Source: a virus. Taken from it: 53,199 bases of DNA. The stretch spans positions 1 through 53,199 of the IMG/VR virus record IMGVR_UViG_3300025668_000008; one strand, written 5' to 3'. The translations under genes and the position numbers were made by a program. Below, one piece after another: positions 17,601-40,500 of this stretch. The notes under the pieces are model-generated. The model saw nothing but the letters and a program-made list of their open reading frames with translations, was not told the DNA's origin and searched no databases. Within the stretch, counting starts at the first letter, position 1; each line of letters opens with the position of its first letter.

Positions 17601-20600
17601 CCATTACATCCAAACTATAATTGTGCTATTGATTCTGCATTTGGTGAACTTAGACCTCAACATTATACAACTAATGTATCTTTAGTTTATAAGGAAGAAC
17701 CAACTAATTACATTAAGGGTGATCTCTTAATGCTTGATTATACTGACAAATTGTTAGTTGAACAACCTTATGCTGCAGTTTCTGAAAATGTAAACCCATT
17801 TGCTGTTGTGTCTTGGGTAGGGTTAATGAATATATTTCCAGCATCTGATGACTGGATTGATGAGAAAAGATTGCCTGAAACTCTTACACCAGTTGAAGGT
17901 GATTTCACAGCAACATTAATGCAAATGGGTGCTGATCCAAATAGTGGATTTGCTCCAGTACAATGGAATGCATGGAGAACTCAATGGTCTAGCACTAGTA
18001 GTTCATCTAGCACTCGTAGGGAAAGTAGAAATCAAGCTCCATGGGTTAGAAATGTCACTAGAACTAGTTCTTCTACTACAACTGCTCAATCTAGAACTGG
18101 AATTAGAACGAGAGTTACACCAAGACAAGATAGAAGAGTTCTTGGCGATAGAGTCGTAGACACTACGTTCTCCAGATGGAAGAGATCTAGAAACTTCTCA
18201 GCAACTGCATATAGATTAAAACCAAATGTAAGAGTATATGCATTTATGGAAGGTAGAAATATTTCTACTTATACCACTCCAAAAATTATTGAAATTCAAA
18301 TGCGTAGTAGCACTGCTTTTGATAAAAATGAAGATATTGCACTTTCAGGAAGAAGAAGAGGTAGAAAATTTAGATGTAAGTTAGGTGGACCGAAAGGTGG
18401 AATTGCTAAACTTAACAAACCTTATAGTGTAGATCCATATACAGGAAATCCTATTACTATTAACGATTATAATACCTCTTCAACATTCCTGAATTTAAAT
18501 ATTGCATCTATGCAACAATTATCAGGATCAAACTATGGTGGTTACCTAATTGAAGGTGATATCATTATTGGTCTTACATCTGGTGCAACTGCAAAGGTCA
18601 CTAAAAAACACTTTATTGCAGATGAAAAAGGCAATTTACGTACTAGCACTTTTATTCCAGATCCCTCAGGCGATGGCAATCCTAGGTGGAAGACAGGAGA
18701 TTCTGTAGTTAGATTTACAGATAGTCCTACCAACTCTATGATTCCTGGCGTTGTTGATAGTTCTGCTGAAAATACTTATAGTGCAAGAGGAACAATTCTT
18801 ACAAAGCAGCAAGATACGCTTCTCGTTAGAAATGCAGATGTTACTAGGGATGTTGTAACTGATAGTAGAATTATTTCTTCTAGTAGAACTAGTACTAGGG
18901 CAGGTGGTTGGTTTGACCCTCTTGCACAATCATTCTTAGTTGAAGAGCAAGGTGGATGTTTTATTTCTAAAATTGACGTATATTTTAGAACCAAAGATTC
19001 CAATCTTCCAGTAACAATGCAAATTCGCGAAATGGTGAATGGTTATCCATCTCCAACAGTTCTTGCTACCGAAAACAAAGATCCTTCTGATGTCAATCTA
19101 TCTGATGATGCTAAAACAAATACCACTTTTGTATTTGAAACTCCTGTGTATTTGGCAGAAAGAAAAGAGTATTGTTTTGTACTCTTAACATCTTCAGTTG
19201 AATATAATGTTTGGTTGTCTGAAATGGGTAAAGATGATTTGAATGGTGAAAGAATCTCCAAACAACCCTATGCAGGTGTTTTGTTTAAATCTCAAAATGC
19301 ATCTACTTGGACTACTGCTGAATATCAGGATATGAAGTTCAAGATCTTTAGATGTAAATTTAAAACAAATGAAACTCCAACAATTGATTTTGTTGCTGAT
19401 AATAGTGGAAACCTTTTCTATAGAGAACTTAGAGAAGATCCTATCGAACTTACCGTTAATGAGAGTGGCACATCACGCGGATATCTAAAAGTCAATCATA
19501 AAAATCATGGTCTTCATGACGAGTCCTCTTTTGTAGAACTTAGAGGTGTTTCTAGTGGTATTCAAACATCACTTGCTGCGAATTGGAGTGGTTCAACTGC
19601 TCAGGCAATTTCATTAACAGATACGTCTGGAACTGATGCAGTTAGAACCCTATTTACTGCGGGATCACCAGAAATGATCTTTGACTCTGGTTCTAGTCCT
19701 ACTAGAAATGGTATTCTTGGAGCAACTCCAAGTGCTGTAAATCCAGGTTATATTTCTATTGGAGGATATGTCTATTCTTACGATCCTAATGCAGTTGGTA
19801 CTGTAACTTCAGGTGAATTTGACATTCCATTACTTTCAAAAATTACTGAAGATAATGTACCTTCAGGTGGATTCAAAAGTAATGATGAGTGGGAAGTAGA
19901 ATTGTATGTTAAAAATGGTATCCCACTTACTTTGATTAACAAAATTCATCAAAATTTAAAATTTATTACTCTTGATAGTTATCAACTTGATTTTAATTCT
20001 TATAGAAGAAATATTGATGCTGATAATGTAACTTTTGGTGGGGATGAAGTAACTGCAAGTACTAACTTACAGTACACATCATTTATGCCTACAATTGCAT
20101 TTAAAGAACTTCCAGGAACATCTGTTGTTAGTAATTTTAAAGGAACTTCAGGAACTTCAATCGGAGATGGTGAATATTCTTTACCCACTCCAAATGTAAA
20201 AAATTGGTATAGAGATTCATATAAGAAAGATTCAAATTACAAGCAAGTTCGTATTAATGAAAATAATTACGTAAATCGACCAAAAGTTATTGCATCTTTG
20301 ATTAATGAGCAGAGGCAAATGTCTAATGCTAATTCGTTTGATTTTAGAATTAAATTAAGTAGTGAATCCGACAATTTGAGTCCTGTAATTGATACAGATA
20401 GAGTTAGTTTAATTACTACAAATAATAGAATTGATAATTTTGATGGATCCACTCGAAGTGCATTTTTTGCAGATAACTTAAGTGCCAATTATACTATTGG
20501 TGAATCTGCAGAAGAAGATTTTAATTCTGCAATTTATATTACTAAACTTGTTACTCTTGCTCAAGAGTGTACTTCTTTGAAAGTTATTCTTTCTGCATTT

Positions 20601-20867
20601 AATAACTCTAACACAAACTTTGATGTTTATGTTAAATTACTTACAGGTGATGAGGAAGATCCAAATAAAATTGAATGGGATCAAATTCCAAATCCATCAA
20701 CATATGCTAATAGAAAATCTGAAGTTGATTTTGCTGACTATGAATATGAAACTAGTTTGACAAACAATAATACTTTCACACAGTATTCACTTAAAATTAG
20801 AATGAGATCTAATAATTCCTGTGATATTCCAATTATTAAAGATTTAAGATGCATAGCACTAGCCTAA
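14610..20867 (+). CDS. Large DUF4815-type baseplate/fibre-network protein (2085 aa)
   Basis: The product follows gp8, where T4 has gp9 and gp10 (fibre socket and outer wedge). The N-terminus (Y-F-E-D-F, then F-R-P-G-F-P-L-Q-A-R-E-L at residues 28-39) is the hallmark of DUF4815 virion proteins. Around residues 940-970 it has R-R-Y-T-M-K-D-I-G-K-L-E and I-D-N-V-E-Y-Y-T-Q-L-S-L-L-E, and near 1435-1480 W-F-D-P-L-A-Q-S-F and I-R-E-M-V-N-G-Y-P, all conserved in the marine T4-like family. Three 'SGAxAxV' repeats (near residues 105, 680 and 1320) and a Ser/Arg-rich patch (about 1125-1195) are inserted. A structural role at the baseplate periphery is likely. Equating it with gp10 is a guess from position. 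The end overlaps the next gene by 19 bases. Confidence 0.75.
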   Translation: MPQSTNLNTPPYFEDFNSDDNFHKVLFRPGFPLQARELTSLQSILQDQIEKFGSSIYKDGAMVIPGQVGYDLKYNAILIEDEYFGIQSNTLVSNKNADGTPVVVGKTIRGNTSGVKAKIVNALSSDQSEKGKATLYIKYINAGNTPVDGVQYTTFQDDEILLTEETFSLGTTVIQENTDFAKCVTSQATFVGSSAKITAGIYFIKGNFVTVPGQEVILDQFGVTPSYRVGLQVLEEIITPEIDNSLNDPSQGYSNYSAPGAHRLKFRTILTKKALDDTTVINFIELLKLEEGKCQEIVSTSKAQIAATLEDTLARRTFDESGDYEVTPYEFSTQECLDNGRNNGVFEINQQTDNDVLASDDLFEIVASPGKSYVRGYEIETIANTYVDIEKPRTTEEQNNRTISTDGRGVRFNLEPNLKVSQPDLSSVLGDVNRTIYLKEDVSTVIGYASLINYVQNSSDNYISLSNIVITTASKKIKDVTILGVGAATGNDYNLTVQAGASKITGQFSPSFFEVYGDNDIKAITDLKVQDVLTHYTGTTTGNDISVDGEYYSTSAGDYTIRLSGENTETLALTINSVTAGTLTATVTGRSGSGNVAFTLIGPQKISEPNVTLSSLQKMRILKLENLSGSKYDVDAEILRLGLTRVRKVHAIYNTDTIEEAIPELTLESGSGTFEVGAIIEGVSSGAKARILRQNGTAVNFTYIGKIRFVVTEEIKSKETGLVRRINSIDNNGAINIKKRYKFRDGQSAQSFNWSYLKKRSSASKINGTLWVVLDWFKDEVPGKFYTVNSYYDADYKEIPYYPIRGERIYLSNLIDWRTNQSNILSNDGSYDSPFAINASDIAASTTLEDFENRNYNFNSYLTPSGTTDGDIEYYLGRIDDLYLDKNGKFINKQGIPSLVPEEPEESLANAMKVGQITMPAYVRNLNKVTFKRSTNRRYTMKDIGKLEDRIDNVEYYTQLSLLESDTANLFISDANGLNRLKNGFLVDNFTSHDIGDPLHPNYNCAIDSAFGELRPQHYTTNVSLVYKEEPTNYIKGDLLMLDYTDKLLVEQPYAAVSENVNPFAVVSWVGLMNIFPASDDWIDEKRLPETLTPVEGDFTATLMQMGADPNSGFAPVQWNAWRTQWSSTSSSSSTRRESRNQAPWVRNVTRTSSSTTTAQSRTGIRTRVTPRQDRRVLGDRVVDTTFSRWKRSRNFSATAYRLKPNVRVYAFMEGRNISTYTTPKIIEIQMRSSTAFDKNEDIALSGRRRGRKFRCKLGGPKGGIAKLNKPYSVDPYTGNPITINDYNTSSTFLNLNIASMQQLSGSNYGGYLIEGDIIIGLTSGATAKVTKKHFIADEKGNLRTSTFIPDPSGDGNPRWKTGDSVVRFTDSPTNSMIPGVVDSSAENTYSARGTILTKQQDTLLVRNADVTRDVVTDSRIISSSRTSTRAGGWFDPLAQSFLVEEQGGCFISKIDVYFRTKDSNLPVTMQIREMVNGYPSPTVLATENKDPSDVNLSDDAKTNTTFVFETPVYLAERKEYCFVLLTSSVEYNVWLSEMGKDDLNGERISKQPYAGVLFKSQNASTWTTAEYQDMKFKIFRCKFKTNETPTIDFVADNSGNLFYRELREDPIELTVNESGTSRGYLKVNHKNHGLHDESSFVELRGVSSGIQTSLAANWSGSTAQAISLTDTSGTDAVRTLFTAGSPEMIFDSGSSPTRNGILGATPSAVNPGYISIGGYVYSYDPNAVGTVTSGEFDIPLLSKITEDNVPSGGFKSNDEWEVELYVKNGIPLTLINKIHQNLKFITLDSYQLDFNSYRRNIDADNVTFGGDEVTASTNLQYTSFMPTIAFKELPGTSVVSNFKGTSGTSIGDGEYSLPTPNVKNWYRDSYKKDSNYKQVRINENNYVNRPKVIASLINEQRQMSNANSFDFRIKLSSESDNLSPVIDTDRVSLITTNNRIDNFDGSTRSAFFADNLSANYTIGESAEEDFNSAIYITKLVTLAQECTSLKVILSAFNNSNTNFDVYVKLLTGDEEDPNKIEWDQIPNPSTYANRKSEVDFADYEYETSLTNNNTFTQYSLKIRMRSNNSCDIPIIKDLRCIALA

Positions 20868-23886: not shown

Positions 23887-24075
23887 ATGAATAATGAAAT
23901 AGATATTAATATCTTAGTTGCTACTCTTCAAAAGAAGATCACTGACTTGACACTTACTAATGTTGTGTTAGAAGCAAAAATACAGGATTTATCAAAACGG
24001 TTAAATAGTATTATAGAAACAGAGAATGCTATAAATGGCAAGCAGAATCAAACTCAAGAGTTCGACAACTCCTAA
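23887..24075 (+). CDS. Small coiled-coil protein overlapping the next fibre gene (62 aa)
   Basis: The predicted product is almost wholly helical: residues 8-46 show a heptad pattern of Leu, Ile and Val between charged residues (for example L-Q-K-K-I-T-D-L and V-L-E-A-K-I-Q-D-L). Its last 41 bases overlap the start of the 3092-residue fibre gene in another frame. This resembles the 79-residue coiled-coil gene at 20849. No ribosome site stands out, so translation may be coupled to the fibre gene before it, 9 bases upstream. The coding call rests on the clean heptad pattern and the tight packing. Function unknown. Confidence 0.6.
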   Translation: MNNEIDINILVATLQKKITDLTLTNVVLEAKIQDLSKRLNSIIETENAINGKQNQTQEFDNS

Positions 24076-27000
24076 TTCAGTACCATTAGTAAGTGATCTC
24101 TCAGATAGAGAGGTTGCTGTTAATATTAATGATAGATCACTGTTTATCAATGACAGTGGAACTATCAAAGAAGTTCTGAATGCCGATCCAAATGATGAAA
24201 CCATCGTTCCATCTATGTTTTCAAGTGCCATCACTGATGGTGTTGGAAACACATGGTTTGTTACAGAAAATGGAACAGACAAAGCAACGATTGGTTCTGT
24301 AAATCCACGTCATGGGGATACCACAGGTAGTAATGCCTGGGGTAAAACCACAATGACGGCGTTTGCTTCACTTAGATATGTTCTTGATAATTATGCTCAA
24401 GCGGGTGATACTATTGTAGTTGAGGGTGGTACATATACTGAAACCTTCCCATTAACCGTCCCAGTTGATGTTTCTATTAAGGGACGTGGAATTAAATCTG
24501 TTTTTATTCAACCATCTGTTGCCACTCAAGACCTAGATGCTTTTCGTATTCTTGGTAATGCTAATATTGAAGATCTTACTGTTAAGAATTTTTATTATAA
24601 CAGTACTAATGATACTGGATATGGATTTAGATGTGCATCAAACTTTTCTATTACTGAACGAAGACCTTATGTTCAAAGAGTAAGTGTACTTACAAAAGGT
24701 TCGGTAACCAGTGCAAATGACCCTAGAGGTTATGATCAAGGGGATGCAGGTAGAGGTGCATTAGTAGATGGTTCTGTAGCAAATGCATCGACAGTAGAAG
24801 CATCAATTTTGTTCAATGAGTGTACATTTGTTGTACCAAATTCAATTGGTTTATACCTTAAAAATGGTGCTCGTTGTGAATGGTTAAATTCATTTACATA
24901 TTATGCACAAATTGGTATTTTTGGAGAAAATCCATCAGGAGGAACAGGTCTTGCTGGAACTGCAAGAACTCGACTAAATCTACAGGGAGACACAGGTAAT
25001 TTTACTGCTGGATCTGTAAACCAAATTGGTTTGATTGAAGCAGGTACATCACAGGTCACTGGTGCATACACAACTAGTGGTGCTGATGATAACTTGACAA
25101 TGACCCTTACTTCCTCCAGTCATGGACTGTCACAAGGGGATCTTGTCTACATTAATACTACTTCTGGTGGTCAAACAGGACTAACACAATTCCGCAAAAT
25201 TGTATCTGCTACCACTAATAGTTTTGTAATTGATGGTATTTTTGCTGGTCTTGCAAGTGCTGGTAATGTAAACTATTTAAAGACCAGTGGTTATGGAATC
25301 ATTGACGAGAATGATGGTACTTATATCTATTTGGATGGACAAGGTGAAGGTCGTATTATTGCGACTGATGAAACTACAGGAAAAAATGTCAATGCTATTG
25401 ATAATGTAGTTACTAGCACTTCTCAAGTAAAACTTGGAACATCTTCAGCATCATTTGATGGCACTGATGATAGATTAACTGTTCCTACAGATGCAGATTT
25501 TAATTTTAGTACTGGTGAGTATACTTTAGAGGCATTTGTTTACCTCAACAATACTTCTGGTTCTAAAACTATTTTTGATTTTAGATCAAATTCTCCAACT
25601 GAAATTTCACCAGTTGTTAATATTGATGGTTCTGATATTAGATATTATGTTAATGGTGTAGCAGAAATTACAGGTGCTGCTGCATTAACTGCAACAACAT
25701 GGCATCATATTGCAATTTCAAGAACTGCAGGTGTATCTAAACTGTTTGTTGATGGTGCTCAAGTCGGTTCTAGTTATACTGATGGTAATGACTTCCCGAC
25801 TAGGGGTATTACTATTGGCGCAGCATTTGATGGAAATTCTGAAATCAATGGATTTATTGATGAGGTAAGAGTATCAAAAGGTACTTCAAGATACAATGCA
25901 GGATTTACTCCTACTACAGTACAATTCTTAGCAGATGAGTTCACCTCATTACTCCTTCACATGGAAGGTGCTAATGGTGCTTCTGTATTTGCTGATGACA
26001 GTATAGTTGCACAAGATGTTAGAACAACTGCTGGCGGTACTGCAACATTTATAACTCTTGCTGATTATACCAAGTTTGGTGCAGAACTTCGTTCTATCTC
26101 ATCTGCTAACGTTTATGGTCTGAAGGGTGTTTCGGCAGATGGTCAAGGCGTAAGTATGCGTCTTATTAGTCATAATTTTGGATATATTGGAGTTGGTAAG
26201 GATGATAATAATGATACAAGTTTAGTTGTACAATCAAATGAAGTCATTGAACAAAATAATGGTCGTGTGTTCTTTACTTCGACTGACCAAAGTGGTGACT
26301 TCCGTGTAGGTGATCTATTCTTAGTTGACCAAGAGAAAGGTACTCTTTCGTTTGCAGGCGGCGGAGCAGGCGCTGGAGCAGGCGCTGGAACTAGTTTTGA
26401 CCAATTGCTCGTATCTGCTGGTGCAGACACCACCACGGTCCTTCCAACGTCCATTGAGGTCGGTGCATTTACTTTCTTCGGTAACACAATCTCTACAACT
26501 TCAGGTAATATTAACCTGACTCCATTTACTGGAGAAGAAATTAACTTTAATCAAAGAGTTAATTTAGAAACTTTTGTTTCTGGAAGTTCACGTCTTTCAT
26601 TAGCATTTGATGGCGATCAAGATACTGGTATTAGAAAGGCAGTTGATCTTGGAGATGGTTTCTTCGATTTAGTATCTAATGGTGGATCAGTAGTTAGAGT
26701 TGCTCCAGGAGAATTTAGATCTCTCACTGATATTAATATTTCATCTTCTATCCCAGAAACTGTTTCTGTAGGTTCTCCAGGTACTGGTTATCTTGTAGGC
26801 ACATATACAGATATTCCTGTATCGGGTGGAACTGGAACTGGTCTTAAAGTTGATGTTACAGTTTTAGCATTTGCAGGAACAATAACAAATGAAGGATCTG
26901 GATATGTACCTGGTGTATACGATAATCTATCCTTTACTAATATTCAAGGGCAAAATAACCAAACTGGAACTGGAACTGGCGGTACGGGTACAGTAACAGT

Positions 27001-30000
27001 TAAAGGTATTGATGACGGTACAATTGTTGCTGGTAGTGGTTATACAGATAATTCTTATTCTGATGTACCTTTAAATGGTGGTAATGGTAGTGGTGCATTA
27101 GCAACCATTACTGTTGAAGGTAATGGTGTTTCTGAAATTTCTATTACAAATAATGGAGACAATTCATACCAATCTGGTGATACATTAACCATCAATACAT
27201 CAGATCTCACGTATGTTGATGAAGAGGGTGCTACTCAAACAAGTGGTGGTTCTGGATTTTCATATACAGTTCCTTCGGATTTATATACAGTAACTAATGT
27301 TGTCCCATCTGCTACTTGGAGTGGTACTGGGTATGACATTGCAGATGCAGTTACTGCAACAGTTCCAGGTGGTGGTAGTGGATTTGAATTTGAATTTAAC
27401 AATATTCAATTCCTTTCTTCGGCAAGTATTGTAAACGAAGATTCTGAAACTGAAGAACCGGTAGCTGGCGAAGGTTATGTTGACGGAGAACAATTATCAC
27501 CTGGATTTGAACTTCTTTCCAATGATACTCTTTCTGGTATTGGTAATACTGTAACTTACAGTGTACAAGTAAGACCTAAATCTGGGGGAGGGGGAAATGC
27601 ATTCTGGATTGATCTTGGTTCTGGTTATGTTGAAGCACCTGCATTAGATTTAAATAAAAATACTCTTTATAAATTTGTATTTGCACCAGACGGAACTTAT
27701 ACTGGTACATTTACAGAACATCCATTTGCAGTATCAGAAACTTTAGATGGAACACTATCAGGAGGTACACAATACACAACTCTTGCTGGTGATTTAAATG
27801 GTGGGAATGGTGCTTATATTATTATAACCGCAACTACACCTGCATTATATTACTACTGTGCCCAGCACCAGGGTATGGGAAATACTTTAGTATCTACAGA
27901 TACTGAGTATGGACAAAATGGCACCATTGCAATTGGTAGTTCAACGTTAGAGAATTTTATCTCTTTAAGTAAAACAGGTGCTATTGGTGCAGAGAGTGCT
28001 ATTTTTGAAGATTTTGTTACCATTAATGGTAACTTAAGTGCAACTGCAGGAACAGTAAACCTTGGAGCAACAACAGCACAAAGTTTAACTGTTAGTGGCG
28101 TATTAAGTACTACTGGGGGTATTTCTACTTCTGGTAATTTAACTATCCAAGGCGATCTTGGTACAAGTGGTAGATTGACCGTTGCTGGATCACCAAATGA
28201 TCCAACCACAATCAATGGTAGTGTTGCATTTGACACTGACCTTATACAGGTAGATTCTACTAATAATAAAATTAGCGTATTTGGACCAACTGATCCAAAT
28301 ACTATTGAAGATTACACTGTAGAAATTAATAGCACTGCTAAAGTTTATAACCACACTTTCTTAGCAACAGATGCTGGATCTATTGTAAGTATTGGTAATG
28401 ATCCTGGACCTACAAATATTGCATCTACATTTGATGAGAAATTTACCGTAGTTGGTGATAGTAAATTTGATGGTAGAATTCTTGTTTCTGATGGTACAGA
28501 AATTGCACCATCAATTACTTTTGATACTGATGAAAAACTTGGTTTATTTAAAAGTGCAAACAATGAAATTACTACGGTAGGATATAATGGTCCTATCATG
28601 AAGACAACTACTCAACAGATTAGTTTCTTCAAACCTGTTGATCTTATCAACAAAGCAATTGATCAATTCACAGTTACGCCAGGAAGAGGGTACGTAATTG
28701 GTACTACTAATAACGTTATTTTCACTGGAGGAACTGGTGCTGATTTTACTGCAAATATAACAGTTGCATTTACGGGCAGTATTACTCAACCTGGATCTGG
28801 ATACTACAACGAAACATTCCTTGATATTCCTGTACAATATATTAGCGTTGCTTCTGGAGCAATTACAGTATTTGGAACATTAACGCCTGGTAGTGGATAT
28901 GTAGATGGAACTTACTCAAATGTCTCACTTACAGGTGGTACAGGAACGCTTGCAACGGGTGATTTTACAATTTCTGGTGGAAGTGTAACCTCGATAGTCA
29001 TTAACGCCAGAGGTTCTGCATATAGTATATCTGATAATTTAGGTGTTGACACTGCAAATATTGGTGGATCAAAACTTTCTGGATCTCTTACTGTCAGTCA
29101 AGCAGGATCTGGATATGATGATGGCAATTATACCAGTATTGCATTGGTTAATGCTACCGGAACAGGATCTGGTGCTACTGCAGACCTAACAGTTTCTAGT
29201 GGATCAATTACTGCAGCAACTGTAAATGTAGGTGGAGGTGGATACACTGCATCAGATACATTTACCGTTGCAGGATCAGATCTTTATGCCAATGGTACAT
29301 ATTCATTTACAGTTACTAATAATGGATCTAGTAATTATGTAATTAGTGGAACTGATAGATCTACTACACATTCATCTGCATCTAACCCATCACTTAATGT
29401 TGATTTTGGTGATACTTTATCATTCACTGTTAATAATACAGGACATCCATTCTATCTTGTTACACAATTAGATCCATCTACTAATGGATATTCCGCAGAA
29501 TATGAACTTCCTGCTACTAATAATGGTGCCGAAGTAGGAACAGTTACTTTTGATACTACATTAACAGTCCCAAGTACAATTTATTATGTCTGTGGAAACC
29601 ATCCAGCAATGGTTGGAACTATTAATATTAATTCAGTAGCGTATGGTAGTGGTGGATCTCTTTCGGCAGCAACAGTATCTACAGGATCTGGATTTGCAAT
29701 TCGTGTAAACAACATTGGATCTAGTGGATCAGGATCTGGTGCTTCAGCAAGAATCAAAACTGAAGGTGGAGTTGTAACTGAATTTAATATTACTACTCCA
29801 GGTTCTGGATACCAAATTGGTGACGTATTGTCAGTCGCCTATAGTAATATGCAATATGCTGATGATACTGGCACTTTAGTAACAATTGACCCACCAACTA
29901 CTACTCTAGAATATACGGTACAAAGATTAAATTCAGTATCATTTATTGACATTGTAAATCTTGGCGCTGGTTACTCAGTACTAGATGTTCTTGATCTTCC

Positions 30001-33000
30001 AGCATCTTTCTATGATGCTACAGCACTTGGATTTAGTTTATTCCCATTAGAGACAGCAGTCACAGTTGGACAAGAGTTTTATTCAGGAGAATACACATAC
30101 GAAGTAACCTCTCCTGGTACTACAGGAACTACTGTTCCTTCATTTGGACAAGACGGTGTATCTGGTATTACTACAAACAATACAGGTTCTGGATATCCTT
30201 CTAGTACAACTATTGAAAGAGTAGAGTGTGAGGCAATAACCGGGATCGGCACTGGTTTACTCGTAGATATTTCCACCAATGCTTCTGGTTCAATTACATC
30301 TATTGCCCCAAGTGGAAATCTTTCTGGTGATTTATTCCAAATTGGAGATCAATTTACATTAGATAATGATTTTATTAATACTGGTGTGGCAACAATTAGT
30401 ATCGCAGGTGGTGGAGATAATGGATCTTATGGAGATACTGAAACATATGATCTAAATCAATCTTCAACTTCAGGAACTGGTTCAAATATTCAGGTAAGAT
30501 TTAGTAGTGATTCTAGTGGAAATATTACTTCTGTATCTATTCTTCAAAATGGTATTGGATATGAAGTCGGAGAAGTTATTGAATTTGATGGTTCACTATT
30601 TGGTTCTGGTGGTGGTGGTGGTGATGGAGAAGACGGTGAAGGTGGGGAACCAGTAGATGACCCAATTACTATTTTAATTTCGGTCGATACTCTTACTAAT
30701 GGTTCTGGTGCAGCATTTACAGTAAATTCAATTTCTAGTTCTGTCTCTAATGGCACGGCAACAATTTCACATAGTGGATACTTCCCTGCAGGATTCTCCA
30801 TTTTAGTTGATTCTCTTGCAGAATATAATAACATTCAGTTTGATGCTGTAGATGGTGTTGTTACTGCTAAAAAACTCGTAGCATCTCCCGATGGAATTGA
30901 AGTTTCAACAACTTTACTTCTTAATAATAATACAGTTTCAACAACTAGTGGTAATTTAACTCTTAATGCAGAAGCAAATTCACAAGTTATAATTGGTGGA
31001 AGTGGTGCATTGGGATTACCCGTGGGTGACGATTCTAATCGTCCCGGTGGACCAGCACAAGGTTCAGTAAGATATAATACTGATAGAAATCAGTTTGAAG
31101 GTTATAATGGTTCATACTTTGTATCTCTTGGTGGCGTAAGAGATGTTGATGGTAATACTTTTGTTATTGGTGAACAGTTCCCTGGTGCAGATGATAATAA
31201 CATCTGGTTCTATAATGATGGAACTCAGACATTAAGAATTAGTCAAACCGATCTAAATCTTGATACACTCAATAATATTAATTCTAACACATATGGAACT
31301 GCAATTGAATGGGTATCCGAATCTGCAGTAACTCAATATATTGTTGATGATGAAGGAACTAATATTCAACAATATGTATATTTTGGAGACAATGTTTATA
31401 GTGTTGACAATGATGGAACATATGGAACTGTATCTCCATCCCATACAACAGGAAATGCAGTTAATGGTGATGTAACTTTAACCTGGTTAGATTATCGTTA
31501 TGATGATTTAAATGTTAATGTCGATAATATTAACATTAACGTTAATGATAAATTTACACTTAGCACCAATGCTTTAGAAATTTCTTCAAGTGCAACTGAT
31601 GAAATTATCAAAACAGACAGAGATGCCTTAACTTTTGGATTTGAACCAGCATCTTCTGATTCTTATCAACTTCTTAAGTTAACTAATAGTGGTGCTCTGC
31701 AAATTAATAGAGGATTCTCTTCCACTGCAGACAACTATCTGACTGTTCTAGATGCAGGTCTTCAAAAGTTAGAACTTGCAAATACTAAGATCTTCACTCA
31801 AACATCCACCCTAGATGCCTCTAGTGGTAATATTGTTTCTGCAAATATGTTCCCATGGGCAGAAGCATGGTCTGGTAAATTTATGGTTGAGGTTGAAGAA
31901 CAGTTCCCAATTCCAGATGCATATCCAAGAAAGCAATATTCTGAACTTTCTTATCTAGTAAGGGGTAATGGTGAAGATATTTTATATACTGAAAATAGTA
32001 AACTTTATACAGATGTACCTCTCGCAGATATTGAAGCGGATCTTTCTGGCATAAGTGTTCAAGTGAGAGTTACTGAACTTGGAAGTGCTCAAAATACTTT
32101 TATTCCTGTTGCTTCTGAAAGATCTGGAGACCTTATTTCTTCAACTTTCTTTACTCAAAATGTTGCATCAGTTATCGATACTGACGCAGACAGAGTTGTA
32201 ATTTATGCCAATGATGCGACAAATAGATCAGTTGGTGGATTTAGAGTTGGTAATGTATCTCATAATGGAATTATATTTGGCACTCAACTTCCTCTGACTG
32301 CAGGTGGAAATGCAGATTCTGCTTCAATTACATTTGATTCTGCAACCAACAGAATTGTATGGGCAGCAGAAAGCGGTGAATATATTGTTGGTGATGTAGA
32401 TCCTAACAATAGTAACGTTACATTTGGCACTCTTGCATCATTTACATCTGACACTGTTGCAGCATATGATCCAACTTCTACTAGAAGTGGAAGAACATGT
32501 AGAATTCTCTCGGCAAATGGTAAGGTTGTTATCGTATATGAAAAAGATACAGGTGGAGTTTATGGAGTTCTGGGTACAGTAACTGGTGGTAATACAAATA
32601 GTATTACTTGGTCATCACCATTTGAGTTTATTGGTGGAATTGGTCTTCAGGATGCATTCACTGATGGAACTTACGTGTACATTAATTATTCTACTGATAT
32701 AGTTGGTAAGTGGGAAGTTGATACTGGTACTACATTTACTAACACGAATGTAGTTGCTTCTATAGGTGATGGTACTAATGCTCAATGGAACGTTGTTGGA
32801 ACCACTAGAGTTATGAAGATGTATCATAATACTGCAACTTCAGAAATTCAGGCAAGATATTATGATCTTAGCGATCTTTCTGAAGTTGGATTCACAGTTT
32901 CTACTGGAATTGATAGTGAATTCTTTAGCGTAGCAAGCAATAATGCTGATAGTCAATTCTTCTTCACTGCTTCTCTTGATTACTCTTCAGCAAATGATGG

Positions 33001-33313
33001 TGAACAAAACATTCAAGGTGTTATTACTGCAAATGGAGATGATTTAGATTACACTTCTAGATCTAGAACTTATGCCGCACTCGATCAACCAGTCGATAGT
33101 GATGGAACTCTTACAAACACTGGTGATTTAGATGTAATTTTTGTTGGATCTAGAGCAGATGGCAATGGTGATCTTCATGATATCTTCGTAACTTCAGCAT
33201 CAACAACCAGCAATATTTCTGCCAATTCGGATGAAACTGTAAGTTTTGCTTCTGCAATTGAAAACAGAACTACATACAATATTAAGATCGTTTCCCACAC
33301 TGTTAAGAGATAA
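24035..33313 (+). CDS. Giant modular tail fibre protein with two cupredoxin-like domains (3092 aa)
   Basis: The N-terminus (IKLKSST, then D-L-S-D-R-E-V-A-V-N and S-L-F-I-N-D) is the fibre head shared with the 740-residue protein. Domains in order: a pectin-lyase-type beta-helix (about 95-325, with V-V-E-G-G-T-Y-T-E-T-F-P-L); 'HGLSQGDLVYIN' near 366; a LamG-like domain (465-635); the fibre motif NNGRVFFTSTDQSGDFRVG (about 742-760); a Gly/Ala linker (775-787); GxGY repeats (910-1130); a first cupredoxin-like domain (1190-1295); more GxGY repeats (1550-1745); a second cupredoxin-like domain (1750-1870); a third GxGY block (to about 2190); an acidic Gly linker (2190-2208); and a C-terminal propeller-like repeat region (about 2690-3056). 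It is likely a host-binding fibre on the baseplate. Enzymatic activity of the beta-helix cannot be judged. Confidence 0.85.
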   Translation: MASRIKLKSSTTPNSVPLVSDLSDREVAVNINDRSLFINDSGTIKEVLNADPNDETIVPSMFSSAITDGVGNTWFVTENGTDKATIGSVNPRHGDTTGSNAWGKTTMTAFASLRYVLDNYAQAGDTIVVEGGTYTETFPLTVPVDVSIKGRGIKSVFIQPSVATQDLDAFRILGNANIEDLTVKNFYYNSTNDTGYGFRCASNFSITERRPYVQRVSVLTKGSVTSANDPRGYDQGDAGRGALVDGSVANASTVEASILFNECTFVVPNSIGLYLKNGARCEWLNSFTYYAQIGIFGENPSGGTGLAGTARTRLNLQGDTGNFTAGSVNQIGLIEAGTSQVTGAYTTSGADDNLTMTLTSSSHGLSQGDLVYINTTSGGQTGLTQFRKIVSATTNSFVIDGIFAGLASAGNVNYLKTSGYGIIDENDGTYIYLDGQGEGRIIATDETTGKNVNAIDNVVTSTSQVKLGTSSASFDGTDDRLTVPTDADFNFSTGEYTLEAFVYLNNTSGSKTIFDFRSNSPTEISPVVNIDGSDIRYYVNGVAEITGAAALTATTWHHIAISRTAGVSKLFVDGAQVGSSYTDGNDFPTRGITIGAAFDGNSEINGFIDEVRVSKGTSRYNAGFTPTTVQFLADEFTSLLLHMEGANGASVFADDSIVAQDVRTTAGGTATFITLADYTKFGAELRSISSANVYGLKGVSADGQGVSMRLISHNFGYIGVGKDDNNDTSLVVQSNEVIEQNNGRVFFTSTDQSGDFRVGDLFLVDQEKGTLSFAGGGAGAGAGAGTSFDQLLVSAGADTTTVLPTSIEVGAFTFFGNTISTTSGNINLTPFTGEEINFNQRVNLETFVSGSSRLSLAFDGDQDTGIRKAVDLGDGFFDLVSNGGSVVRVAPGEFRSLTDINISSSIPETVSVGSPGTGYLVGTYTDIPVSGGTGTGLKVDVTVLAFAGTITNEGSGYVPGVYDNLSFTNIQGQNNQTGTGTGGTGTVTVKGIDDGTIVAGSGYTDNSYSDVPLNGGNGSGALATITVEGNGVSEISITNNGDNSYQSGDTLTINTSDLTYVDEEGATQTSGGSGFSYTVPSDLYTVTNVVPSATWSGTGYDIADAVTATVPGGGSGFEFEFNNIQFLSSASIVNEDSETEEPVAGEGYVDGEQLSPGFELLSNDTLSGIGNTVTYSVQVRPKSGGGGNAFWIDLGSGYVEAPALDLNKNTLYKFVFAPDGTYTGTFTEHPFAVSETLDGTLSGGTQYTTLAGDLNGGNGAYIIITATTPALYYYCAQHQGMGNTLVSTDTEYGQNGTIAIGSSTLENFISLSKTGAIGAESAIFEDFVTINGNLSATAGTVNLGATTAQSLTVSGVLSTTGGISTSGNLTIQGDLGTSGRLTVAGSPNDPTTINGSVAFDTDLIQVDSTNNKISVFGPTDPNTIEDYTVEINSTAKVYNHTFLATDAGSIVSIGNDPGPTNIASTFDEKFTVVGDSKFDGRILVSDGTEIAPSITFDTDEKLGLFKSANNEITTVGYNGPIMKTTTQQISFFKPVDLINKAIDQFTVTPGRGYVIGTTNNVIFTGGTGADFTANITVAFTGSITQPGSGYYNETFLDIPVQYISVASGAITVFGTLTPGSGYVDGTYSNVSLTGGTGTLATGDFTISGGSVTSIVINARGSAYSISDNLGVDTANIGGSKLSGSLTVSQAGSGYDDGNYTSIALVNATGTGSGATADLTVSSGSITAATVNVGGGGYTASDTFTVAGSDLYANGTYSFTVTNNGSSNYVISGTDRSTTHSSASNPSLNVDFGDTLSFTVNNTGHPFYLVTQLDPSTNGYSAEYELPATNNGAEVGTVTFDTTLTVPSTIYYVCGNHPAMVGTININSVAYGSGGSLSAATVSTGSGFAIRVNNIGSSGSGSGASARIKTEGGVVTEFNITTPGSGYQIGDVLSVAYSNMQYADDTGTLVTIDPPTTTLEYTVQRLNSVSFIDIVNLGAGYSVLDVLDLPASFYDATALGFSLFPLETAVTVGQEFYSGEYTYEVTSPGTTGTTVPSFGQDGVSGITTNNTGSGYPSSTTIERVECEAITGIGTGLLVDISTNASGSITSIAPSGNLSGDLFQIGDQFTLDNDFINTGVATISIAGGGDNGSYGDTETYDLNQSSTSGTGSNIQVRFSSDSSGNITSVSILQNGIGYEVGEVIEFDGSLFGSGGGGGDGEDGEGGEPVDDPITILISVDTLTNGSGAAFTVNSISSSVSNGTATISHSGYFPAGFSILVDSLAEYNNIQFDAVDGVVTAKKLVASPDGIEVSTTLLLNNNTVSTTSGNLTLNAEANSQVIIGGSGALGLPVGDDSNRPGGPAQGSVRYNTDRNQFEGYNGSYFVSLGGVRDVDGNTFVIGEQFPGADDNNIWFYNDGTQTLRISQTDLNLDTLNNINSNTYGTAIEWVSESAVTQYIVDDEGTNIQQYVYFGDNVYSVDNDGTYGTVSPSHTTGNAVNGDVTLTWLDYRYDDLNVNVDNININVNDKFTLSTNALEISSSATDEIIKTDRDALTFGFEPASSDSYQLLKLTNSGALQINRGFSSTADNYLTVLDAGLQKLELANTKIFTQTSTLDASSGNIVSANMFPWAEAWSGKFMVEVEEQFPIPDAYPRKQYSELSYLVRGNGEDILYTENSKLYTDVPLADIEADLSGISVQVRVTELGSAQNTFIPVASERSGDLISSTFFTQNVASVIDTDADRVVIYANDATNRSVGGFRVGNVSHNGIIFGTQLPLTAGGNADSASITFDSATNRIVWAAESGEYIVGDVDPNNSNVTFGTLASFTSDTVAAYDPTSTRSGRTCRILSANGKVVIVYEKDTGGVYGVLGTVTGGNTNSITWSSPFEFIGGIGLQDAFTDGTYVYINYSTDIVGKWEVDTGTTFTNTNVVASIGDGTNAQWNVVGTTRVMKMYHNTATSEIQARYYDLSDLSEVGFTVSTGIDSEFFSVASNNADSQFFFTASLDYSSANDGEQNIQGVITANGDDLDYTSRSRTYAALDQPVDSDGTLTNTGDLDVIFVGSRADGNGDLHDIFVTSASTTSNISANSDETVSFASAIENRTTYNIKIVSHTVKR
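25429..25935 (+). other. LamG/concanavalin-A-like domain in the 3092-residue fibre
   Basis: Residues 465-635 show the phage LamG order: S-S-A-S-F-D-G-T-D-D-R-L, then D-F-N-F-S-T-G-E-Y-T-L-E-A-F-V-Y, T-T-W-H-H-I-A-I-S-R, L-F-V-D-G-A-Q-V-G, I-T-I-G-A and G-F-I-D-E-V-R-V-S-K-G-T-S-R-Y. This jelly-roll fold commonly binds carbohydrate. The strand that normally opens such a domain, S-L-L-L-H-M-E-G-A-N-G, here comes after the RY end motif. Confidence 0.85.
27601..27900 (+). other. Cupredoxin-like domain 1 (H1229, C1275, H1278, M1281)
   Basis: Residues about 1190-1295 begin with strands F-W-I-D-L-G-S-G-Y and L-Y-K-F-V-F and reach H-P-F-A (H1229). They then give a Gly-rich stretch and the blue-copper loop Y-Y-Y-C-A-Q-H-Q-G-M-G (C1275, H1278, M1281). 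The C-x2-H-x2-M spacing is the short loop type seen in amicyanin. All four type 1 copper ligands are in the expected order. Copper binding is inferred from the ligands, not shown. Confidence 0.75.
29281..29640 (+). other. Cupredoxin-like domain 2 (H1804, C1853, H1856, M1859)
   Basis: Residues about 1750-1870 contain L-S-F-T-V-N-N-T-G-H-P-F-Y-L-V (H1804), a strand G-T-V-T-F-D and then I-Y-Y-V-C-G-N-H-P-A-M-V-G-T-I-N-I (C1853, H1856, M1859). The ligand set and loop length equal those of domain 1 although the rest of the sequence has diverged, so the ligands look to be under selection. The domain is flanked on both sides by GxGY repeats. Confidence 0.78.
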
Positions 33314-34527: not shown

Positions 34528-37500
34528 ATGGCGTTAGAATTTAATGCTGATAAGGAGATTCTTAAGTCGAATTCTCTTAAGATCAAAAACGATACAAGTT
34601 TGAATTTGAGATTGGGTGGTGGTGCTGATGAAAAATCAGCACTATTCTCTCAATTATCTAACGACGTTGATAAACTCGTTCGTGTTGGTATTAATACAAC
34701 AGCCCCACAATATGAATTGGATGTTGAGGGTCAGATTAGAACGACCACTTCTATTATTTCCGATACTGCAAAAATTAATAATCTTGATATTGACACTATT
34801 GTCAATGCAAAATTAAATTTAAAAGCACCTGTTCTTCAATCATTTGTTGATCCTGAAACTGGCGATACCTTCTTCCCAACTTCTGAAACTCCTGCCTTTG
34901 ATGATGATACTAACAAAGTTGCAACCACAAATTTTGTTTATAACATTGCAACTAATGACGTTGGTGGTCGTGTTTATGTTTCTGAACAAATTGGCAATGA
35001 CGACTTTGATGGTCGTTCTGCTACAAAACCAGTAAGAACTATTAAACGAGGAGCACAGATTGCTGGTACTACTCCTGAGAAGGAGACCCTTATTATTGCA
35101 GGTGGAGATTATTTAGAAGATAATCCAATCTCTATTCCTGATAAGTGTTCGGTTGTTGGCGATAATATTCGTCTCTGCATCATCAGACCGCAGAATCCGA
35201 ACAAGCACATGTTCAAGAATCAGAATGAAAACTATATGATTGGTGTCACATTCCGTGACAAGATCGAAGTAGTTGATGGGTTTGAACAAGCTATTGGTAC
35301 TTGGGATTATGCTTATGTGTTTGACGATAAGCAAAGAATGTATTATGACAAAACACTTGGTGGTCAATATGGAAGACAATTTCCAATTGGTTATCAAATT
35401 TTTGGTGAAGGTATTTTCCGAATTGAGTTTGACCGTGCAAGTATATCTGATCCTGATTTTCAAATAGGTGACGAAATTGTTGGTGTTGCAACTGGTGGTC
35501 GAGCACTTATTACAGAAATTAGTTATGGACTACCCGACAGTTTAAATGTTTCAGAGCAGACGAGTGTAGATAAAGGATTTATCACTGTCGATACTGTAAG
35601 GGGTGCATTAGAACAAGGTGATACATTTAAATATTCTCCAGTTCCTGCTGTAGGTGCAGTTCGTTGGGCACCAGAAACTGCTTATACATTAGGACAACAA
35701 GTATTTACTGATAATACACTTTATGATGTCTCTATTGCGGGTACTTCGGGTCTCAACGAACCATCACACCAATCTGGTGCTGATACTAATGGAACGTTAG
35801 AATTTAGTTTTAATTCTAGTATTCCTCAGTATATATTTACTGCGTCCAATGTTAAATCACTGAGACCAGAAGGTGAAGTTACTGAGCATGTAACTACTCA
35901 TCCAAACTATCTTATTGAAAGTTGCTGGTTTGATAGTGCAGATCCAGATTGGATGTATTTTAGGACACAACAATATCACACATTTGAAGAAGGTCAATGG
36001 GTAGAATTTACAGACCTTCCTAATTCTGGTGCTGGTGGCGATCTCAATAGATTCAACGGTCGTCAATATATCACAAAACGTGTAGAGCAGTTAGACGGTT
36101 TTAGTGATACATTTGCAGTATTTAAAGATACTCCTTCACAATTAGGTTCAGAATCTTCACAATTTTCTTTAACCGTTTTTGGTGCTGTTGTAACATCATC
36201 AGACGATTATGTTAAATTTAGTTTGCTAAACTCACCATTTAAATTTGAAGAATCTGAAAAAGTTGGTTCCAGATTTTTAGATGGTGCAGACCTGATTAGA
36301 AGGAATAAAGAGTTTATTGCAGACGAAGCAGTAATTAGAACTAAAGCAAAATACACTGGTCTACTTATTCCCGACGAAACTCAGTGTAAAACAGACATTA
36401 AGCATTTATTAAATGCTGTACAATATGATCTTTCTAATGGAGGCAATGCAGCAACATTAGAAGCAGCTAATTATTATAAAGAAGGTAACGCTCTTCTGCA
36501 CATTTCTCCTCAATTAGAAGAAACTAGATATGCATTTGAGCAAGCAAGAGAGATGGCAGTTCTTGCCATCAGAAACAGAATTAAGTATTTAAGTGGTTCA
36601 AATTTAACTGCTATCTCAAATACACTCGGTGGTAATATTAATTCAGTTCAGTGGATTAATACTCAATTTGTTGCTGTAGGTGATGGAGGTCTTCTTGCAA
36701 CTTCTCCAGATGGACAAACTTGGACTACACAAACAAATCCACTCCCAGGTGCTTCCTATAAGGATATTGTCTGGAATGGTACGACAACTATTGTTATTGG
36801 TGGTGATGGCGGTACGGGTGTAGTAATTACATCTAACAATGGAACTAATTGGGCAGTTGCAGAATCTACACTTGGAAGTGCTACCGTTGAAACCATTGCA
36901 TGGGATGATAACGAGCAATGGGTAGGGTTTGGTGGAACACAATGGTTCACTTCAAATAATGGGCAAGAATGGACTGCAAACGGATCATTCGTTCCAGTAA
37001 ATGGATCGGGCACTCATAGTATAGTTGATGTAATTTGGGACTACACAAATAGTCAGTTTGTAGCAGTTGGTAGTGGAGGTAGTGTATATACTTCTCCTAA
37101 TGGAACAACTTGGACTGAGAGATCTACTTCATCAACTACATTCTCTGCAATTACATCAAATGAGGATGTATTGATTGCTGCTGCTGGAGATGAAATTTTC
37201 AAATCTACAGATGGGATCAATTGGGAAATTGGAATTGCTGCTCCTCTAGTAGCAGATCGTTATGCAGATGCTGCAGATTTAATTCTTGCGAATCAAGAAA
37301 TTATTGCAGAAATTGCCGTCAACAAGATGTTGGCAAACAATACTGGATTTAATATTCCTTCAGGAAATCAGGCATGTAAAGATGATGTAATTGATTTCTT
37401 AAAATCAATGGTTATTGACCTCCAATATGGTGGTAATGATCAAACTTATGATGCAGCGAATCTTTATGTAACTGGTACTCATGTACAAGGTGAAGAAGAT

Positions 37501-40500
37501 GAGTCAGTAGAAGTATTTGGATATGCAGAAACTCTTGCCATTAGTGCAATGAGAAACGAAGCATTTGGTGTATCGGATGTCCAAAACTATGCTTCTGGTC
37601 TTCTTCAAAATTTTGACAATAGTATTACTATTGATAATAGTTCACCTTATTGTGCAAACGTAGCAAGTGCTATTAGTACTCTATTTGGTATTCTTACAAC
37701 TGCTATTGGTACTACTGCAACTCCTGGTAATCTTTCTGGGGTTACAAGAACTCCATCGGGCAGTAATAATAATAAACTGTATCATGATGGTTATCAGTTT
37801 TGGATTAGTACAGATGATGGAATTTTATATTCATATGACGGTCGTAAGTGGGGACTGACCGCAGGTACTGCAGGTCTAAACTTTACTGCATTAGGTTCTA
37901 GTTATGATGCATTTGTTGCATTTGAAACAGCAACTAATAAATTTTACTATTCTACTGAGTTAGTAAATGATGGTACATCTACTGAAGAGACCTTCAGAGA
38001 TACTACTATTTCTAATACATATGAAGCAAACAGAGATTATGTTTGTGCTAATGTACAATCTGCAATCTACACATACTTTGGTATTATTGATACTGTAATT
38101 TCTGGCGGAACTGCTCCAGATAGAATTCTTCCAGAAAAATCATTTACAGACAATGGAGTTAAATTTGTTACTTTTGCGAGAAACTTCTTAGATCTTCCTA
38201 TTATTGAAGCATCTCCATATATCTTTAACTCTTCTGTAATTTCATTCCTTGGTGGATCTGGTTGCGAAATTGATGGTGGTAAAGTTGCAGATCCAAACGT
38301 CATTAGACCAGGATTACCTCCTCAGGGTAAATCGATGGTTGCTGCAGCATTCACGATCATCTCATTTGGTGGTACTGGATATAGAGTTATTAATGATGGT
38401 TATACTCAACTGGTTTCGGTATTCTGTATCTTCACATTTGATGGTTGTATCGTCGAAACTGGTGGTTATGCATCACTGACTAACTCTGCATCAAACTTTG
38501 GTATCTATTCACTGAGATCATCTGGTTTTAGAGAAACTGCTTATACATTTGATATTGGTGTTGTTGATGACGTAACATTTGATTTAATTGGCACGCCCAC
38601 ATTTGATATCGTTCAACTGAACAGTGAACCAAGAGAACATTATGTCTTTAAAATTGATGGCATTAAATCAGTTTTAAAGGCAAGTGAAAATCCTGAATAT
38701 TTTATTGACGCAGTACTTCAAGCATCTGGATCTGAAGCATTGGTGCAAGCAGACCAGCAGATGTTCCTGATTGGTAATGAAAACAGATATACTGATGCTG
38801 CAGTACTAATTGAGAATAATAAAAAGTACATTGCAGAAGAAGCATTTTATACAGAACTGTATCAAAATACTTATTCATTCCAAGCAAATTATGCCAAGTG
38901 CATCAGAGATACTGAACTGATTATTCAAGCTATTGCTGATGATATCAGAGATGATGGTAACGCATTTACTTGGGATGCAGGTAAAACATATATTGAAAAC
39001 TCAGGTGTTGCTCACGTCACAGGATATACTGCAGCAACTAAAGCAGTATTTGATGAGGCAATTATTCTTTGTAAGAAAGCAATTAATAACCAACTCTTAG
39101 AGTTTGGAACTACGCCAACTACTGAACAAACCAATGCCTATTATCATGTTGCACAGTATACGACTGTAAAACCATATGTTGATACTACTGTAATTCATGA
39201 CGTATCATCTCCAGCAGGGGAAACTGGTCTGCCTACAGATCTTTATAGTAGTTCTGATTGTGCTAATGTACAAACAGCTATTGACACATTAAATACTCTC
39301 CTTGATGAAATTCTGGATAATCCATCAGTAACTACACCAATGCCTTCGGGTGCGGCGAGAAATGATGGTCAATTCACTCTTGACAACTCAACTCGTTATA
39401 AAGTATTAAACCATCCAATCAATTTACATAGACCATCTATTTGTAACTCTTCTTCACATACGTGGGAATTTTCTGGTTCGGGAATTGATTATAATGCCCT
39501 GCCACAAAATGGCGGTAAGAGAGGATCAGAAGATACAAAAGATTTTGAACAAGTATCTCAAAATAATGGTCGTGTTTATGCATCAGGTACTGATGAACTT
39601 GGTAACTTTAAAGTTGGTTACTTTGCTAACATTGAAAATAGAACGGGTAATATTACCTTTGGTGGTACTGTTGAAATTGAAGAAGTTGCATTCTTGAAAA
39701 TTAAAGGTGGAGATCTTGAAATTGTTGGTTTCTCCGGCAATGAAAAACTTGGTGACGTTACATTAGGTTCTACTGAACAGAGAAGTGCTAGAATTCTAGC
39801 AACTCAATCTTCTATCAGAGAATATATTACTAATAATTATGGTAATTATAAGAACAAACCATATGGTACAACTCCATCTCCTGGAAATCTTGTACAGTTA
39901 GGTTCTGATGGTAGAATTAATATTGATCAGATCCCAGCACTGAGACCATTTAATGTCTTTACTGTTGCAGATCTTAACGCACGTCTTGAACTAGAAGGAG
40001 CACTTGCAGGTGATATTGCAATTCAATTAGCACCAAATAATATTTCATATATTCTTAATAATGATACATATGCTCAGATTCTTGAGTTTACACCAGATAC
40101 CACATATACCTTTTCGGTAAATGATATTGTAAGTGGTTCACCAACAAATGCACAAGGTACTGTTTCTAGTTACATTCATGGTGAAGTATCTCCACTTGTA
40201 AATATTATTACAGGTGGTTCTGGTTATACCACAGCACCATCTGTCACGATTGGCATTCAATATGAAAACAGCACTGGTTATAGTTCTGGTGCCCAGGTTG
40301 CAGCAAATGGATATCTTTACACTGTAACTGCATCTGGTACAACCTCAGCATCTGGTACTGGTCCAAATCATACCACTGGATCTGCAACAGATGGAACAGT
40401 AACATTTGAACATGTAGGTGTATCTGCACAAGCAACTGCAAGTATTGATAGTAACCGAGTATCTAATGTTGAAATTATAACTAGGGGTTCTGGTTATACC

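What the first reader, a model, noticed from the sequence alone, without database searches (positions are those of the whole stretch)
27601..29640. Two complete blue-copper (cupredoxin) sites in one tail fibre
The 3092-residue fibre has two separate segments with the full type 1 copper ligand order: H1229, C1275, H1278, M1281 and H1804, C1853, H1856, M1859, both with the short C-x2-H-x2-M loop known from amicyanin. The two segments differ elsewhere but keep the ligands, which argues for selection on metal binding. I have seen similar motifs in predicted structural proteins of other marine T4-like phages but know of no experiment. A metal-loaded fibre could aid folding, stability, redox sensing or contact with host metal-uptake receptors; an iron-based version of the last idea exists as a published hypothesis for phage tails (the 'Ferrojan horse').
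Basis: partly seen in the sequence, partly recalled or inferred. Interest (0 to 1): 0.8.

Follow-up and report, generated by a model that had tools for sequence, protein, structure and literature searches.

The report
Blue-copper-type domains on phage tail protein
A giant tail protein of a marine T4-like virus of bacteria carries two domains folded like blue copper proteins, each with a complete copper-binding site; such domains turn out to be common, swappable parts of marine phage tails that appear not to have been described before, although nobody has yet shown that they hold copper.

Summary
Observation confirmed. The 3092-aa protein (24035-33313 +) has H1229/C1275/H1278/M1281 and H1804/C1853/H1856/M1859; no other window protein has such a motif. 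AlphaFold2 models are cupredoxin folds (pLDDT 93.8 and 80.5). For both, the best solved match is the N-terminal cupredoxin domain of a three-domain copper nitrite reductase (Z 11.6 and 10.1), then rusticyanin. Profiles of relatives match plastocyanin, rusticyanin and amicyanin in the PDB.

The domains belong to two subfamilies, each with more than 550 relatives in viral contigs, in tail fibres, gp9-like connectors and other structural proteins of cyanophages, pelagiphages and Methylophilales phages. In ligand-blind searches 71 of 72 (D1-type) and 53 of 63 (D2-type) unique domains keep all four ligands. Where the site is lost, at least two ligands go together, never exactly one. Orthologous fibres show intact sites, complete losses and copies at other positions.

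Best reading: an exchangeable accessory domain on the tail, with a type-1 copper site kept by selection in most lineages but dispensable for the fold. Copper binding and any role in host contact are untested. It is not an amicyanin: only the loop length matches. No paper found describes cupredoxins in phage tails.

The parts
24035..33313 (+). gene of the 3092-aa tail or baseplate-associated protein that carries both domains
   Evidence: PHROG tail families; relatives L417-L432
25457..25879 (+). Laminin_G_3 (ConA-like lectin) domain, aa 475-615, upstream of the copper-type domains
   Evidence: Pfam PF13385, E 3.9e-19
27542..27910 (+). cupredoxin domain D1, aa 1170-1292
   Evidence: AlphaFold2 pLDDT 80.5; PDB match Z 10.1; subfamily profile 101 bits (D1 is itself in that profile)
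27719..27721 (+). D1 ligand 1, H1229
   Evidence: invariant in A5
27857..27877 (+). D1 ligand loop C1275-x2-H1278-x2-M1281
   Evidence: invariant in A5
29282..29650 (+). cupredoxin domain D2, aa 1750-1872
   Evidence: AlphaFold2 pLDDT 93.8; PDB match Z 11.6; Pfam PF00127 at 21.2 bits
29444..29446 (+). D2 ligand 1, H1804
   Evidence: invariant in A4
29591..29611 (+). D2 ligand loop C1853-x2-H1856-x2-M1859
   Evidence: invariant in A4

Best explanation
D1 and D2 are cupredoxin domains with complete type-1 (blue) copper sites. They decorate the shaft of a giant tail or baseplate-attached protein of a T4-like marine phage. They belong to a family of exchangeable accessory domains that marine phages add to, move among and remove from tail fibres, gp9-like connectors and other structural proteins. 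Shown here: the sequence, the predicted fold, the ligand conservation, the modular distribution, and presence of the domain type in a virion protein. Inferred: the domain folds in the host cytoplasm, probably without metal, and takes up copper after release or at the host surface. The metal then locks the ligand loop and makes a compact, stable knob that contacts the host envelope or shields the shaft. Because the fold survives loss of the site in some lineages, copper is an added property and not the reason the domain folds.
For: Ligand residues verified. Models are nine-stranded beta folds whose best PDB matches are copper proteins: 2dv6 N-terminal domain and rusticyanin. A profile of 25 relatives hits almost only cupredoxins in the PDB, best E 2.6e-5; rusticyanin's GHSF aligns with the phage GHPF and its Cys, His and Met fall in the same columns. 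H, C, H and M are invariant in 25 sequences, 53 and 59. Ligand-blind tests: 71 of 72 and 53 of 63 unique domains keep all four. In all, 266 of 283 domains (window included) keep all four, and none of the 17 others lacks exactly one. In the closest fibre, L417, the two domains evolve faster than the whole (70% identity versus 78%), yet all 8 ligands are kept. Modular distribution. Virion presence: P-SS2 ORF080, a single-domain member without the metal site, was found in purified particles with an average of 9 peptides (PMC2784084 Table 2). Cellular relatives are often lipoproteins with the domain at the C-terminus, a setting outside the cytoplasm.
Against: No metal data of any kind. Model coordinates were not returned, so ligand distances were not measured. 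The Asn that normally follows the first His is Pro. The site has been lost about five times on the tree and in orthologues of this fibre, so it is not essential everywhere. The one member proven in virions lacks the site. Loop residues next to the exposed His vary, which argues against one conserved redox or receptor partner.
Confidence: 0.62

Rival explanations
1. The domains are purely structural beta-barrel decorations, like Ig-like domains on other phages. The ligand residues survive as fold-stabilising contacts or as a relic, and no copper is bound in nature.
For: The fold persists where the site is lost: the FCQM clade and YAQM, ISQM, HSTL and HQNT members; D2-equivalents in L420-L423 and L425 with no ligands left; P-SS2 ORF080 in virions without the site. 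Free copper in the ocean and in the cytoplasm is very low (general knowledge).
Against: The four ligands, far apart in sequence, are among the most conserved columns and are lost only in groups of two or more: 0 single losses against about 35 expected if ligands were lost independently (rates; events are few, so descriptive). A relic would decay one residue at a time.
Confidence: 0.22
2. Copper Trojan horse: the copper-loaded domain is recognised by host metal-uptake or redox proteins at the cell surface and helps adsorption, the copper counterpart of the iron Ferrojan horse hypothesis.
For: The domains sit on tail proteins; the same domain family decorates bacterial lipoproteins; the iron version exists as a published hypothesis (PMC11705849).
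Against: Loop positions flanking the exposed His are variable, so no conserved partner surface is visible. There is no host-receptor evidence, and the site is dispensable in sister fibres.
Confidence: 0.08
3. The site binds another metal (Zn, Cu(I) only, Ag), or the free Cys serves a redox or thiol function.
For: C-H-H-M sites can bind Zn or other soft metals when loaded in the cytoplasm (general knowledge).
Against: Met in the axial position and the short loop are the standard type-1 copper arrangement; Met is as conserved as the other ligands (98%); the Cys is lost only together with other ligands.
Confidence: 0.08

Closest known systems
N-terminal cupredoxin domain of three-domain copper nitrite reductase (Hyphomicrobium denitrificans, PDB 2dv6)
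   Same: Best structural match for both domains (Z 11.6 and 10.1, about 100 residues); a cupredoxin tethered inside a larger protein
   Different: 15-23% identity; part of an enzyme, not a virion protein
Rusticyanin
   Same: Z 10.8 for D2; aligned GHSF/GHPF motif and Cys, His, Met ligands
   Different: Longer C-to-H and H-to-M spacings; free-standing electron carrier
Amicyanin and plastocyanin
   Same: Ligand order; amicyanin's C-x2-H-x2-M loop length; profile hits
   Different: Far below the curated family cut-offs; Pro instead of Asn after the first His; the cyanophage PetE plastocyanin (PMC3037559) is a separate gene
PHROG 677, 'baseplate wedge tail fiber protein connector' (gp9-like)
   Same: Its C-terminal about 100 residues are this domain, E 1.4e-15 with D2 (L008, L010, L013, L019, L021, L022)
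   Different: The copper-type nature is not annotated; the carrier protein differs
HxH iron sites of T4 gp37 and phage R22Y (Ferrojan horse)
   Same: Metal site proposed on phage tail fibres (PMC11705849)
   Different: Octahedral His sites in trimeric fibres; no HxH in this protein
Accessory Ig-like and BACON domains of phages
   Same: Exchangeable beta domains scattered over structural proteins
   Different: Different folds, no metal site (general knowledge)

Membership tests
Cupredoxin fold superfamily | Greek-key beta-barrel similar to solved cupredoxins | tested here: met
   top matches are copper proteins, Z 11.6 and 10.1
Type-1 copper cupredoxin | Ligand order His ... Cys-x(n)-His-x(n)-Met, Met axial | tested here: met
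   aligned to rusticyanin and nitrite reductase
Type-1 copper cupredoxin | Ligands close together in space | not tested
   Model coordinates are not returned by the tools; only implied by the fold match
Type-1 copper cupredoxin | Bound copper, absorption near 600 nm | not testable with these tools
   Needs bench work
Pfam PF00127 Copper-bind (plastocyanin/azurin) | Score at or above the gathering cut-off (21.2 bits) | tested here: inconclusive
   D2 20.6 or 21.2 bits depending on the ends given; D1 no hit
Amicyanin (TIGR02657) | Score above the equivalog cut-off 110.2 | tested here: not met
   D2 13.7 bits
Plastocyanin (TIGR02656) | Score above the equivalog cut-off 87.85 | tested here: not met
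   D2 19.6 bits
Plastocyanin, azurin and amicyanin | Asn after the first His ligand | tested here: not met
   Invariant Pro in all 112 aligned sequences
Exchangeable phage accessory domain | Occurs in unrelated structural proteins and varies between orthologues | tested here: met
HxH iron fibre (Ferrojan) | HxH motifs | tested here: not met
   His positions: no two His are two residues apart

The most novel reading that the evidence does not exclude
Many marine phage particles carry blue copper centres on their tails, and the copper takes part in infection: it docks the particle to host surface metal-uptake or redox proteins, or switches the fibre by redox state.
Probability: 0.12. Interest if true: 0.92.

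Novelty: new variant of a known kind. Interest (0 to 1): 0.68.

Why it matters
If copper is bound, many marine T4-like phages, and some podo- and siphophages, would be copper proteins: the first blue copper centres known to me in phage particles. That would bear on host recognition, particle stability and the marine copper budget. Even without copper, the family explains a frequent 'hypothetical' or mis-named segment of phage tail proteins. It also offers natural controls, since orthologues that differ in the presence of the site are already in the databases.

Tried and rejected
Recent duplication of one domain into the other: rejected. D1 and D2 are 29% identical and each fits its own subfamily profile far better (101 versus 12.5 bits and 127 versus 22 bits; each domain is a member of its own profile, which inflates its score). 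Chance motif: rejected (one search counts; homologues). Amicyanin membership: rejected. A third copy elsewhere in the window: none. A single-sequence scan of viral contigs with D2 found nothing, because exact peptide patterns are too strict; alignments were needed. The first alignment was too diverse for a scan. Papers: searches with cupredoxin, plastocyanin-like, blue copper or copper together with phage, virion or tail terms gave nothing on cupredoxins in phage tails; the library holds open-licence papers only. The hope that the MS-proven P-SS2 protein would carry an intact site failed: its ligands are lost. Statistical test of coupled ligand loss on the tree: too few independent events (3-4 pairs), so the coupling argument is descriptive. 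The D1-type profile A5 found only one weak blue-copper match in the PDB (E 0.062), so D1's assignment rests on its relation to D2, the joint profile and the model.

Full report
What was claimed and what is there. Translation confirms every residue number. Seven Cys exist in the whole protein, and two of them are these ligands. From the residue counts, the chance expectation for C-x2-H-x2-M in this protein is about 1.8e-4; two are seen, each with an upstream His-Pro-Phe. None of the other 16 window proteins checked has one. Profiles of the family later found no third copy.

Fold. Sequence libraries give weak but specific hints: D2 scores 20.6 to 21.2 bits with Pfam PF00127 (cut-off 21.2), D1 nothing. 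A profile of 25 phage relatives finds almost only cupredoxins among solved structures: nitrite reductase 2.6e-5, plastocyanin, rusticyanin, amicyanin. A D2-type profile aligned to rusticyanin puts GHPF on GHSF and the Cys, His and Met in the same columns. The D1-type profile alone has only one weak blue-copper hit (E 0.062). AlphaFold2, with alignments of 53 and 59 sequences drawn from the window and viral contigs, gives pLDDT 93.8 (D2) and 80.5 (D1). Foldseek and VIA-align rank copper proteins on top for both; the best match is the N-terminal cupredoxin domain of three-domain nitrite reductase 2dv6, Z 11.6 (rmsd 2.8, 97 residues) and Z 10.1 (rmsd 2.6, 100 residues), then rusticyanin. I could not read out coordinates, so ligand distances are inferred from the fold match only.

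Two subfamilies. D1 and D2 are 29% identical. D2 fits profile A4 with 127 bits and D1 with 12.5; D1 fits A5 with 101 bits and D2 with 22. Each is a member of its own profile, so the gap is somewhat inflated, but this is not a recent internal duplication. Each subfamily has more than 550 relatives among the first 600 pattern matches in viral contigs.

Where the family occurs. Among named phages, D2-like domains are found in 159 records and relatives of an S-B68 D1-like domain in 176, almost all cyanophages, with Pelagibacter and Methylophilales phages. In Kyanoviridae the domain forms the very C-terminus of the gp9-like 'baseplate wedge tail fiber connector'. In P-SSM2 it sits inside a collagen-like tail fibre protein; in pelagiphages in tail fibres. 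In complete ORFs of the viral loci the domain lies at the C-terminus or inside proteins of 221 to 2115 residues. BFVD models give the same picture and also point to giant-virus beta-sandwich proteins. Relatives in cells are mostly marine Bacteroidetes proteins, many of them lipoproteins with the domain at the extreme C-terminus.

Is the metal site selected? Three controls were used because the loci had been fetched with patterns that include ligands. First, with the ligand columns masked from the profile and forced residues set aside, M is kept in 169 of 172 cases, H1 in 119 of 122, H2 in 107 of 111 and C in 33 of 37; the ligands rank among the top five conserved columns. Second, loci were fetched with patterns taken only from the stretch between H1 and C: D1-type 71 of 72 unique domains complete, D2-type 53 of 63. 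Third, over all viral loci plus the window 266 of 283 domains are complete; the 17 others all lack at least two ligands and none lacks exactly one. If the four ligands were lost independently at their observed rates, about 35 single losses would be expected. The losses fall into about five events on the tree, too few for a formal test. The FCQM clade replaces both His and keeps Cys and Met.

The same fibre in other phages. Sixteen contigs hold relatives of its N-terminal 400 residues. L417 (84% identical there) has both domains in place with all eight ligands, although the domains are among the fastest-evolving parts (70% identity against 78% overall; dN/dS about 0.17 and 0.25). D1-equivalents are complete in L418, L419 and L427 but degraded in L426. 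D2-equivalents are complete in L426 (with C-x2-H-x3-M) but have no ligands left in L420-L423 and L425. L420-L423 instead have a complete copy near residue 425-541. So the domain is swapped and moved, and its copper site is kept or lost as a unit.

Are these domains in particles? The P-SS2 siphovirus protein ORF080 consists of this domain alone and was detected in purified particles with an average of 9 peptides (PMC2784084 Table 2). Its own ligands are lost. Proteins annotated as virion structural in Syn1 and S-TIM5 carry complete sites, but the underlying proteomics could not be read here. Direct proof that a metal-competent copy is in virions is therefore still missing from what I could read.

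How it most likely works. Shown: fold, complete and mostly conserved site, modular use on tail proteins. Inferred: copper is bound after release, since cytoplasmic copper is scarce (general knowledge), and stabilises an accessory knob used in contact with the host envelope. The variable residues around the exposed His argue against one dedicated electron-transfer partner. The copper version of the Ferrojan horse remains possible but unsupported; the published iron version rests on HxH motifs (PMC11705849), absent here.

Membership and novelty. It is a cupredoxin by fold and ligand set. It is not amicyanin or plastocyanin by curated cut-offs, and it differs from them by Pro in place of the Asn after the first His. 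I found no paper on cupredoxin domains in phage tails, within an open-licence library. I rate it a new variant of a known kind: a known metal-protein family in a setting where it has not been described.

Noticed in passing
L433:2980-3318 (P-SS2 ORF080): A free-standing 113-aa member of the family, found in purified siphovirus particles in a published proteome, with its metal ligands lost and an insert shared with some gp10-like copies.
   Followed up: partly
L233-L235, L239, L240, L250, L257, L258, L260-L264: A D2-type clade in which both His ligands are replaced (F/Y/I and Q); habitat and host of this clade unknown and worth comparing with intact relatives.
   Followed up: partly
L352, L362, L365, L380 and others of L343-L416: Marine Bacteroidetes lipoproteins with one or two of the same domains at the C-terminus; possible cellular source or recipient.
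   Followed up: partly
L426, D2-equivalent at aa 1717-1830 of the ORF at 10001: Ligand loop with C-x2-H-x3-M instead of C-x2-H-x2-M.
   Followed up: no
window 24035-33313, aa about 880-1170 and 1570-2030: Degenerate GSGYxxGxY...GGTGxG beta repeats flank both copper-type domains; the domains appear inserted into this repeat shaft.
   Followed up: no
window 2498-13099, 14610-20867 and 34528-45036: Three further giant structural proteins (3533, 2085, 3502 aa); the last matches tail fibre PHROG 5342 in 14 stretches.
   Followed up: no
BFVD hits A0A481YVH3, A0A481Z6J5, A0A7D3QVK4: Giant-virus 'beta-sandwich' proteins and a Fadolivirus 'blue type 1 copper protein' resemble the D2 model.
   Followed up: no
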